Source: an uncultured Flavobacteriaceae bacterium (GTDB taxonomy: Bacteria > Bacteroidota > Bacteroidia > Flavobacteriales > Flavobacteriaceae). From it: a DNA stretch of 64,000 nt. Positions 26,745 to 62,056 of this stretch are shown piece by piece. The stretch lies in the NCBI GenBank assembly GCA_947500585.1, contig CANMSN010000002.1:124001-188000 (forward strand). Direction: 5' to 3'. Each line of letters starts with the position of its first letter. Position 1 is the stretch's first letter. The position numbers and the translations under genes are program-made. The notes below the pieces were generated by a model. It worked only from the letters and a program-made list of their open reading frames with translations, made no database searches and was not told the DNA's origin.

Positions 26745-26794
26745 TTGATATTTATTATCTGCATGTCATCAAGAAAAGTAGAAAAACACTTTTC

Positions 26795-26944
26795 GTTATC
26801 TTTCTGCTTTTTGATTAGTTCCTGAAACAAATTCAGGACAAGCAGTAGAATTTAGCACCTTCTTTACGATCCTGATAGTCATCAGGACATGTAAAGGGTT
26901 GCCAAGGCTTCAACGGGTCTAATCCCTCTACCTTTCTTGATAAC
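26795..26944 (-). promoter_or_regulatory. SAM-I (S-box) riboswitch of the metH operon
   Basis: The minus strand shows the S-box core: P1 GTTATC (26939-26944) paired with GATAAC (26795-26800), AAGAAAGGTAGAGGGA, the GCAACC loop motif after GAAGCCTTG, and AAGGTGCTAAATTC before a CTGCTT/AAGCAG stem. The P3 arm carries an additional CCTGATGACTATCAGG hairpin. No U-tract terminator follows. GAAAAGT/ACTTTTC is the only hairpin before the ATG, so control may act on translation. SAM binding would switch off metH. Confidence 0.9.
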
Positions 26945-26969
26945 ATTAGTACGTTAATGAACTAAGCCA

Positions 26970-45182: not shown

Positions 45183-45300
45183 TTTTCTAGTTTTTTAGTT
45201 AATGTTAAATGAACCAAAAGTCAAAATGCACTTTAAAAAAGTGTACTTATTAGAAAAATGTTATAAAGAATATCGAATTTACAGACGGTAATTTCGTTTG

Positions 45301-45417
45301 GTTATCTATCTAAAACACTAAATAAATTAGTAGTTTAAGTAGAATTTAGCACCTTCTTTACGAGTAAAGGGTTGCTAAGGTTTCACAGGGTCTAATCCCT
45401 CCGCCTTTCTTGATAAC
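45301..45417 (-). promoter_or_regulatory. SAM-I (S-box) riboswitch of the metY operon
   Basis: The minus strand has P1 GTTATC (45412-45417) with GATAAC (45301-45306), AAGAAAGGCGGAGGGA, the GAAACCTTAGCAACC core, a short CTTTAC/GTAAAG P3 arm and AAGGTGCTAAATTC, then a P4 stem CTTAAACTACTA/TAGTGTTTTAG. The core is nearly identical to the metH copy but lacks its extra P3 hairpin. It lies 119 bp before the metY ATG. Confidence 0.92.
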
Positions 45418-45447
45418 ATTTCAGTAAGTGTTTGAACTTTGTGAATG

Positions 45448-60958: not shown

Positions 60959-61573
60959 CTACTTTTTATCTTTTTTAAGAAACAACGCTTCCTTAATTTT
61001 TTTTAACCTTTTAAAGGTACTTTCCTTTATAGGTTTTATATCGCTTTTCTTTACATTTGGATCATATAACATGCCTGTACATAAACACATTTTTCTATTG
61101 GTGCGCGTTAACACATCATAGTTTTTACAAGTCTGACAACCATCCCAAAAAGTTTGATCGTCTGTTAATTCTGAAAATACAACAGGCTTATAACCTAAAT
61201 CGCTATTCATTTTCATCACAGCTGATCCTGTTGTGATACTAAAAATCTTTGCATCTGGAAATTTATCTCTAGAATGCTGAAACACTTTATGCTTAATCTT
61301 TTTAGCCAACCCAACACCCCTATAGTCTGGATGAACAATTAATCCAGAATTAGCTACAAATTTTCCATGACCCCACTTTTCAATATAACAGAATCCTGCA
61401 AATTTATCGCCATCTAGGGCAATAACTGCATTACCATTTTCCATTTTTGTTGAAATATATTCTGGGGTACGTCTAGCAATACCTGTTCCTCTTACCGCAG
61501 CAGATTCCGCAATGGTCTCACAGATAATTTCTGCGTATTTTATATGTGATTTATCGGCTATTACAACCTTCAT
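60959..61573 (-). CDS. GNAT acetyltransferase, candidate N-acetylglutamate synthase, with four-Cys C-terminal region
   Basis: A 204-residue protein. Residues about 1-140 are a GNAT domain: the acetyl-CoA loop RGVGLA at 85-90, strand SGLIVHPDYRG before it, and SITTGSAVMKMNSDLGY after it. Residues 146-165 add Cys146, Cys149, Cys163 and Cys165 (C-x2-C-x13-C-x-C), a possible zinc or Fe-S site, and a basic C-terminus. As first gene of an arginine operon that has no argA or argJ, it is the best candidate for acetylating glutamate; this is inferred from context. Its start codon region (61570-61579) is perfectly complementary to a segment of the upstream Arg leader peptide frame. Confidence 0.82.
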   Translation of the reverse strand: MKVVIADKSHIKYAEIICETIAESAAVRGTGIARRTPEYISTKMENGNAVIALDGDKFAGFCYIEKWGHGKFVANSGLIVHPDYRGVGLAKKIKHKVFQHSRDKFPDAKIFSITTGSAVMKMNSDLGYKPVVFSELTDDQTFWDGCQTCKNYDVLTRTNRKMCLCTGMLYDPNVKKSDIKPIKESTFKRLKKIKEALFLKKDKK

Positions 61574-61683
61574 TTTCCTAACTTGTGTTTGTATTAAATC
61601 CTAATTTTTTTCTTGAATGCTGAACTGGACTCACCTAGTTCAATAAAATTGATACATACCCTTACGGGCGACGAGGAAAATGA
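61570..61683 (-). promoter_or_regulatory. candidate translational attenuator of the arginine operon
   Basis: On the minus strand TCATTTTCCT (61674-61683, His-Phe-Pro codons of the leader) pairs over ten bases with AGGAAAATGA (61570-61579), which contains the start codon of the GNAT gene. Between them lies a local TGAACT/AGTTCA hairpin. No U-tract terminator is present, so the arrangement favours control of translation initiation or of Rho access rather than intrinsic termination. Confidence 0.5.
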
Positions 61684-61691
61684 CGACGCAT
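61662..61691 (-). CDS. Arg-rich leader peptide MRRHFPRRP
   Basis: A nine-codon frame ending in TAA, 88 bp before the first arginine gene. Four of nine codons are Arg (CGT, CGT, CGT, CGC), in two pairs flanking His-Phe-Pro. Random DNA of this AT content would rarely give this in front of an arginine operon. A ribosome waiting at Arg2 or Arg3 would cover the segment that can otherwise mask the downstream start codon. Confidence 0.7.
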   Translation of the reverse strand: MRRHFPRRP

Positions 61692-61753
61692 AATAGAACT
61701 GTTGTTAATTATTAAATTAACTTGATTTTGAACTGCTATGATAAAAAAATTGG

Positions 61754-61881
61754 ACACTATGAAAAAATTAAATTACGTACTGGTTTTGCTTTAAACGAAG
61801 ATTAAAAGCGACGGCGGGGATTGCTTGCGGGCAACCTGCGAAACACATAACGTATTCTATTTTTTAAATTTTCCATAGTGT
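61754..61881. repeat. 128-bp imperfect inverted-repeat element upstream of the arginine leader
   Basis: Terminal 8-bp arms ACACTATG (61754-61761) and CATAGTGT (61874-61881) extend as an imperfect stem (AAAAATT..AATTTT, TACGT..ACGTA). The centre is distinctly GC-richer than its surroundings (GCGACGGCGGGGATTGC to GGGCAACCTGCG) and can itself fold. It resembles a small non-autonomous element or an integron attC-like hairpin, but no matching core site could be confirmed. The remaining parts of the 61574-62056 gap (61885-62056) are AT-rich and show nothing. Confidence 0.5.
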
Positions 61882-62056
61882 AAAACTAAGATTTTATTTT
61901 TATAATCGTCTAAAAATGATTTAGTTTTTAATAAAAATTGCGTATATCTCTTTTTTTATAAGATTTTGTTTTAAAAAATTTAAAAATTATAGGTTTTGAT
62001 GGAAAAAATGTATGATTGAAGTGGCGCGTTTTATAAAACTCTATATGATTTTGGTA

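What the first reader, a model, noticed from the sequence alone, without database searches (positions are those of the whole stretch)
61570..61691. Arginine leader peptide whose coding sequence can mask the start codon of the first arginine gene
A nine-codon frame MRRHFPRRP precedes the 11-gene arginine/proline operon. Ten bases of that frame (TCATTTTCCT, codons 3-6) are perfectly complementary to AGGAAAATGA, which contains the ATG of the GNAT gene. If arginyl-tRNA is scarce, a ribosome stalled at Arg2/Arg3 would cover this segment and leave the GNAT start open; if arginine is plentiful, the leader is finished and the pairing can form. That is a simple arginine-sensing translational attenuator without an intrinsic terminator, different from the Phe operon in the same window. 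The peptide and the complementarity are seen directly; the mechanism is inference.
Basis: partly seen in the sequence, partly recalled or inferred. Interest (0 to 1): 0.8.

Follow-up and report, generated by a model that had tools for sequence, protein, structure and literature searches.

The report
Tandem arginine leader peptides before arg operon
The stretch just ahead of the arginine-making genes in this marine bacterium carries two short arginine-rich reading frames and several conserved RNA folds, which look like a built-in switch that turns the genes on when arginine runs short; the same switch occurs in most members of its family that were searched, and the usual arginine repressor was not found in 40 relatives.

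Summary
MRRHFPRRP is the C-terminal end of a 31-codon leader ORF (ORF2; GTG start at 61757). Upstream lies a second arginine leader ORF, ORF1 (MENLKNRIRYVFRRLPASNPRRRF, 61876-61802), whose ATG sits 4 nt after a sigma-A -7 box, so its mRNA is probably nearly leaderless. Supporting RNA structures are a long-range helix from ORF1 codons 1-13 to the U-rich segment just before ORF2; hairpin A, whose loop holds the ORF2 stop codon; and hairpin B, with nearly invariant loop UGNGU and a covarying stem. The element was found in 183 of 299 Flavobacteriaceae genomes, almost always once, in front of the arg operon, including two cases where the first gene had been replaced. Rfam has no match, and ArgR was absent from 40 of 40 relatives. 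The Arg-rich 3' end of ORF2 shows protein-level selection; its N-terminus does not, so codon stalling fits better than a nascent-peptide sensor. Best reading: a tandem ribosome-mediated arginine attenuator. No expression data were available; all regulatory steps are inferred.

The parts
61881..61888 (-). Predicted sigma-A -7 box TAGTTTTA (consensus TAnnTTTG), ending 4 nt before the ORF1 ATG
   Evidence: TAnnTTT[GA] followed after 2-9 nt by the start of an Arg-rich leader ORF in 115 of 139 relatives (4-5 nt in nearly all ORF1-bearing ones, mostly 5-8 nt where the single leader ORF comes first). Consensus from F. psychrophilum TSS mapping, PMC9723704. No TSS data for this genome.
61802..61876 (-). 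Leader ORF1, MENLKNRIRYVFRRLPASNPRRRF-stop
   Evidence: Conserved Arg-rich end in relatives (mean 5.1 Arg per peptide); synonymous excess in codons 11-end: 45/50 in frame vs 31/79 and 28/95 out of frame
61836..61881 (-). 5' arm of the long-range helix (ORF1 codons 1-13)
   Evidence: Own-species partner better than swapped partners, 0 of 5000 permutations as good, 34 non-redundant leaders; window duplex -27.2 kcal/mol
61788..61809 (-). Hairpin C around the ORF1 stop: GCTTTTAATCTTCGTTTAAAGC
   Evidence: Arms pair better with own partner: 25 of 5000 permutations as good
61753..61790 (-). 3' arm of the long-range helix, U-rich, ending over the ORF2 GTG
   Evidence: at least 6 T in 8 nt just before the ORF2 start in 87 of 88 relatives, although the region is T-rich anyway
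61662..61757 (-).
   Evidence: Start codon 30-31 codons before the stop in 82 of 88 relatives; synonymous excess only in codons 23-31
61658..61670 (-). Hairpin A, CGCCC-GUAA-GGGU(G), stop codon in the loop
   Evidence: 92% of pair cells paired; C-G to A-U compensatory change in L202/L204/L211 (CGCAC/GUGCG)
61621..61642 (-). Hairpin B, UGAACU-A-GG-UGAGU-CC-AGUUCA
   Evidence: Six outer pairs all show changes on both sides; loop AGG-UGNGU-CC almost invariant; 0 of 500 shuffles reach the covariation score of hairpins A+B together. Inner G-C to A-U change in L152
61674..61683 (-).
   Evidence: moderate support in ORF1-bearing lineages only
61570..61579 (-). 3' strand of the masking helix, AGGAAAATGA, holding the GNAT start codon
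   Evidence: In the predicted minimum-energy fold of the window leader; not conserved family-wide
60959..61573 (-). First operon gene, GNAT-fold N-acetyltransferase
   Evidence: Pfam PF00583
50321..60897 (-). Rest of the operon: argG, argC, proC, argD, proA, proB, acetylornithine carbamoyltransferase, argB, argE-like, argH-like
   Evidence: NCBIfam/Pfam

Best explanation
The 5' leader (about 61878-61574, minus strand) is a tandem, ribosome-mediated arginine attenuator of the arg operon. Shown by sequence comparison: two Arg-codon leader ORFs in series, a predicted near-leaderless first ORF, a covarying long-range helix between ORF1 and the U-rich segment just before ORF2, hairpins A and B, and linkage to the arg operon. 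Inferred: with plentiful arginyl-tRNA the ribosome completes ORF1, the long-range helix forms, and the transcript either stops at its U-rich 3' arm or has its ORF2 start occluded; any ribosome that completes ORF2 lets the leader refold with hairpins A and B and, in this clade, mask the GNAT start. With scarce arginyl-tRNA, ribosomes stall on the Arg codons (R7, R9, R13/14 and R21-23 of ORF1; R24/25 and R29/30 of ORF2), which keeps the helix and the mask from forming, and the operon is made. The two checks in series would make the response steep.
For: Element in 183 of 299 Flavobacteriaceae genomes, almost always one copy. 130 of 139 leaders read directly upstream of GNAT homologues carry the hairpin B motif. 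It is kept in front of argG-argC where the first gene is a different acetyltransferase (L217, L218). Arg codons at the ORF ends with coding-type selection. Long-range helix 0/5000, hairpin B 0/5000, hairpin C 25/5000 in swap tests; hairpins A and B 0/500 in shuffles. ArgR absent in 40 of 40 relatives while control genomes, including a Bacteroides, ring. Leader-peptide attenuation was proposed for amino-acid operons in F. psychrophilum (PMC9723704).
Against: No expression, TSS, 3'-end or ribosome data. The 3' output step is not settled: no canonical terminator was found, and the masking helix lacks support in lineages without ORF1. About a third of sampled Flavobacteriaceae lack the element. 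Swap and shuffle tests do not correct for shared ancestry. The role of hairpin B's invariant loop is unexplained by this model.
Confidence: 0.72

Rival explanations
1. Pure translational attenuator: only ORF2 matters, and a stalled ribosome uncovers the GNAT start by covering the masking segment.
For: Perfect 10-bp complementarity in the window; better own-partner than swapped-partner pairing in ORF1-bearing lineages (4/4000; controls 367 or more); the masking helix, with hairpins A and B inside it, is in the predicted minimum-energy fold.
Against: Ignores ORF1 and the long-range helix, which are better supported; no support in the 29 leaders grouped as 'other' (1385/4000); hairpins A and B are conserved where the mask is not.
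Confidence: 0.15
2. Purely transcriptional attenuator: the long-range helix and its U-rich 3' arm form the terminator, and ORF2 with hairpins A/B is a second transcriptional checkpoint (pause or Rho).
For: At least 6 T in 8 nt before the ORF2 start in 87 of 88 relatives; helix 5' arm contains Arg codons, so stalling there blocks it.
Against: The terminator scan found none; the region is T-rich anyway, so U-runs are partly expected; hairpin B has no consistent U-tract after it.
Confidence: 0.2
3. Nascent-peptide sensor: the RRP-stop peptide binds arginine or another ligand in the exit tunnel and arrests, as TnaC or SpeFL do.
For: RRP-stop is nearly invariant and Pro-stop is a slow termination context (established knowledge of arrest peptides; sequences).
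Against: ORF2 codons 2-22 show no protein-level selection (40/120 in frame vs 44/118 and 38/126 out of frame); the Pro follows hairpin A, for in L204 and L211 the CCG codon becomes ACG and the peptide reads RRT.
Confidence: 0.07
4. Hairpin B is a ligand- or protein-binding RNA (riboswitch-like or protein-operated) and the leader ORFs only modulate it.
For: Loop almost invariant across the family while the stem is replaced; specific to arg operons, about one copy per genome.
Against: Small for an aptamer; no Rfam relative; degenerate in several genera that keep the ORFs.
Confidence: 0.1

Closest known systems
orf34-speF leader of Salmonella (SpeFL), PMC6386406
   Same: Short leader ORF with consecutive Arg codons; ribosome progress decides the fold of the mRNA downstream; arginine high means low expression
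   Different: Controls ornithine decarboxylase, not arginine synthesis; single ORF; Rho and RNase G take part; no direct sequence or fold comparison with this element was run
rbfL of Staphylococcus aureus, PMC13009471
   Same: GUG-started leader peptide whose Arg codons sense arginine limitation and act on translation of the next gene
   Different: Stalling blocks the next gene by covering its ribosome-binding site: opposite sign; 8 codons; no conserved RNA folds in the passages read
trp/his-type leader-peptide attenuators
   Same: Run of codons for the end product of the operon at the end of a short leader ORF, alternative folds
   Different: Two leader ORFs in series; no canonical terminator found; conserved hairpin B
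Bacteroid-trp RNA (RF01692), PMC2864571
   Same: Listed as a probable cis-regulatory RNA in Bacteroidetes; by its name and from memory, of a tryptophan operon
   Different: Other operon; no Rfam match in the window leader

Membership tests
Ribosome-mediated attenuator (leader-peptide type) | Short ORF ahead of the operon with codons for the pathway's end product | tested here: met
   ORF1 and ORF2, conserved Arg codons with coding-type selection
Ribosome-mediated attenuator (leader-peptide type) | RNA structures whose formation depends on where the ribosome stands | tested here: inconclusive
   The structures are supported and overlap the ORFs: long-range helix includes ORF1 Arg codons, hairpin A overlaps the ORF2 end. 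Dependence on the ribosome is inferred
Ribosome-mediated attenuator (leader-peptide type) | Response to charging of the cognate tRNA | not testable with these tools
   Needs reporters or ribosome profiling
Transcriptional attenuator (trp/his type) | Intrinsic terminator alternative to an antiterminator | tested here: inconclusive
   No terminator by consensus scan; long-range helix ends in a U-rich arm
Translational attenuator | Start of the first gene sequestered unless the leader ribosome stalls | tested here: inconclusive
   Supported in ORF1-bearing lineages (4/4000), not in others (1385/4000)
Nascent-peptide arrest (TnaC/SpeFL type) | Conserved residues along the peptide that contact the exit tunnel | tested here: not met
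   No protein-level constraint in ORF2 codons 2-22
Known Rfam cis-regulatory families (T-box, riboswitches, Bacteroid-trp, others) | Match to the family's covariance model | tested here: not met
   No match at gathering score in the leader; only a chance-level hit at E 1.9
ArgR regulon | ArgR repressor in the genome | tested here: not met
   PF01316 in 0 of 40 genomes incl. the window's own; 9 of 14 control genomes ring

The most novel reading that the evidence does not exclude
A two-checkpoint arginine attenuator serves in place of ArgR across much of the Flavobacteriaceae: a near-leaderless first leader ORF gates the second, and hairpin B, with its nearly invariant A-GG-UGNGU-CC cap, is a dedicated docking site for a protein, the ribosome or arginine itself.
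Probability: 0.3. Interest if true: 0.78.

Novelty: new variant of a known kind. Interest (0 to 1): 0.62.

Why it matters
The usual arginine repressor is missing from the relatives searched, and no control of arginine synthesis in them turned up in the papers searched. A family-wide element of about one copy per genome, tied to the arg operon, gives a testable answer. Two leader ORFs in series, the first nearly leaderless, is an arrangement I know of in no described amino-acid attenuator (own knowledge, not a systematic search), and hairpin B's invariant loop has no known partner.

Tried and rejected
(1) Rfam at gathering score and at E up to 10: nothing in the leader. (2) Hairpin B loop as a complement of the 16S 3' tail: with the E. 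coli-type tail GGAUCACCU the fit looked perfect with the variable N bulged, but the only near match to the tail in this genome reads GGAACACCTCCTTTCT (not confirmed as 16S), which leaves 5+3 pairs, and L152 keeps the fold with AGAUG: dropped. (3) Hairpin B as an intrinsic terminator: no consistent U-tract. (4) Matches of the model outside Flavobacteriaceae (L153, L155-L157) and the weak ones L154 and L158 lie in unrelated genes or repeats: false. (5) My first GAAYTN pattern for hairpin B in the own genome was badly written and missed the window copy; the covariance model replaced it. (7) GUCCY-hairpin (PMC2864571) is named for Bacteroidetes, but its sequence is not in the text; here GUCC is followed mostly by a purine, so probably different. 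(8) Literature: no arginine leader of a Bacteroidetes arg operon found. (9) The -33 promoter element was looked for; no clear position emerged.

Full report
What was claimed.

Observation. The frame is at 61691-61662 on the minus strand, and TCATTTTCCT (61683-61674) is the exact complement of AGGAAAATGA (61579-61570). The operon is as described. In shuffles, nine or more contiguous pairs between segments of this size are expected about 0.2 times in 88 leaders; two were seen, one of them the window.

The frame is part of a longer ORF. The frame ending in RRP-stop is open far upstream in nearly all, and a start codon stands exactly 30 or 31 codons before the stop in 82 of 88 ORF1-bearing leaders, at other positions almost never. 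It is TTG (39), GTG (36) or ATG (13). In the window it is GTG at 61757: MSNFFIIAVQNQVNLIINNSSIMRRHFPRRP.

A second leader ORF. About 120 nt upstream of the ORF2 start is the start of ORF1, 18-24 codons in relatives, ending in a run of Arg codons: MENLKNRIRYVFRRLPASNPRRRF in the window (61876-61802). In nearly all ORF1-bearing relatives a TAnnTTT[GA] box, the sigma-A -7 element mapped in F. psychrophilum (PMC9723704), ends 4-5 nt before the ORF1 start, so the transcript should start within a few nt of the start codon (inference; no TSS data). Other genera have a single ATG-started leader ORF, often ending in RRRP or RRRRP, in many of them with the box 5-8 nt before it.

Selection on the peptides. 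In 31 close pairs, ORF2 codons 23-31 have 37 synonymous to 16 non-synonymous changes in frame against 6/51 and 5/49 in the other frames; codons 2-22 show none of this (40/120 against 44/118 and 38/126). ORF1 from codon 11 on has 45/50 against 31/79 and 28/95. Only the Arg-rich ends are kept as protein. That speaks for codon-dependent stalling and against a nascent-peptide sensor. Leader Arg codons are mostly CGC and CGT, while the window's genes prefer AGA; CG-rich hairpins may explain this.

RNA structure. Hairpin B (61642-61621) has six outer pairs that all change on both sides somewhere in 93 sequences, and a cap AGG-UGNGU-CC that hardly varies; hairpin A (61670-61658) encloses the ORF2 stop and has C-G to A-U changes in three sequences; together 0 of 500 shuffles reach the observed covariation. 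The alignment for that count was fitted to the model's structure, which leans towards it. A deviant copy, L152, has AGA-UGUGU-UC, which keeps the inner pairs. A long-range helix joins ORF1 codons 1-13 to the U-rich segment ending over the ORF2 start. With 34 non-redundant leaders, own-species arms pair better than swapped arms in all of 5000 permutations (-14.99 against -11.21 kcal/mol); for example CAAATAATATTA/TAATATTATTTG in L204 and TATAAAATAGTG/CACTATTTTATA in L177. A small hairpin around the ORF1 stop is weaker but above chance (25/5000). These tests do not correct for shared ancestry.

The masking helix. The same swap test on the ORF2 3' end against the GNAT start gave 26/5000; of nine other segment pairs, eight gave 1396/5000 or more, and the ninth (ORF2 3' end against the A-B spacer, 30/5000) contains part of hairpin A. 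With more sequences: 9/4000 overall, 4/4000 in ORF1-bearing leaders, 1385/4000 in the rest; matched controls 214/4000 or more. The register changes between genera (window TTTTCCT/AGGAAAA; Hyunsoonleella L017 TCGTCGTTT/AAACGACGA).

Distribution. A covariance model of the ORF2 end with hairpins A and B finds the element in 183 of 299 Flavobacteriaceae genomes, almost always once, and nowhere convincing outside the family: weak distant matches lie in unrelated DNA. In G084 and G152 the first gene is a different acetyltransferase, 26% identical over part of its length in the one compared, yet the element still precedes argG and argC. The element thus goes with the operon, not with the GNAT gene. 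ArgR is absent from 40 of 40 genomes, while nine of 14 control genomes, among them a Bacteroides, show it.

Mechanism. Best reading: two arginine checks in series. Stalling on ORF1 Arg codons, several of which lie in the long-range helix, prevents that helix; stalling on ORF2 Arg codons covers hairpin A and the masking segment. Whether the long-range helix acts as a terminator (its 3' arm is U-rich) or hides the ORF2 start cannot be told from sequence. Hairpin B's invariant cap suggests a partner that remains unknown. All regulatory steps are inference.

Comparison. It works like leader-peptide attenuators. Closest in sensing are orf34-speF of Salmonella (PMC6386406) and rbfL of S. aureus (PMC13009471), neither for arginine synthesis and the latter with opposite sign. 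No Rfam family matches. I file it as a new variant of a known kind.

Noticed in passing
window 26793-26946 (-) and 45299-45419 (-): Two SAM riboswitches (RF00162) in the same 64-kb window
   Followed up: no
L217 (G084) and L218 (G152): The first gene of the arg operon is replaced by a different acetyltransferase (the two are 48% identical to each other) while the leader element stays
   Followed up: partly
L023, L028, L035, L043, L049, L055: Confluentibacter, Mariniflexile and Flaviramulus relatives without the exact hairpin B motif but with ORF1 kept; a natural test of what hairpin B does
   Followed up: no
L017, L007, L033 upstream of GNAT: In Hyunsoonleella the bases before the GNAT start (ACGACG/GACGAC) are complementary to the tandem Arg codons of ORF2
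   Followed up: partly
ORF2 of ORF1-bearing leaders: Length fixed at 30-31 codons although codons 2-22 are free to vary; unexplained (queue length or RNA geometry?)
   Followed up: no
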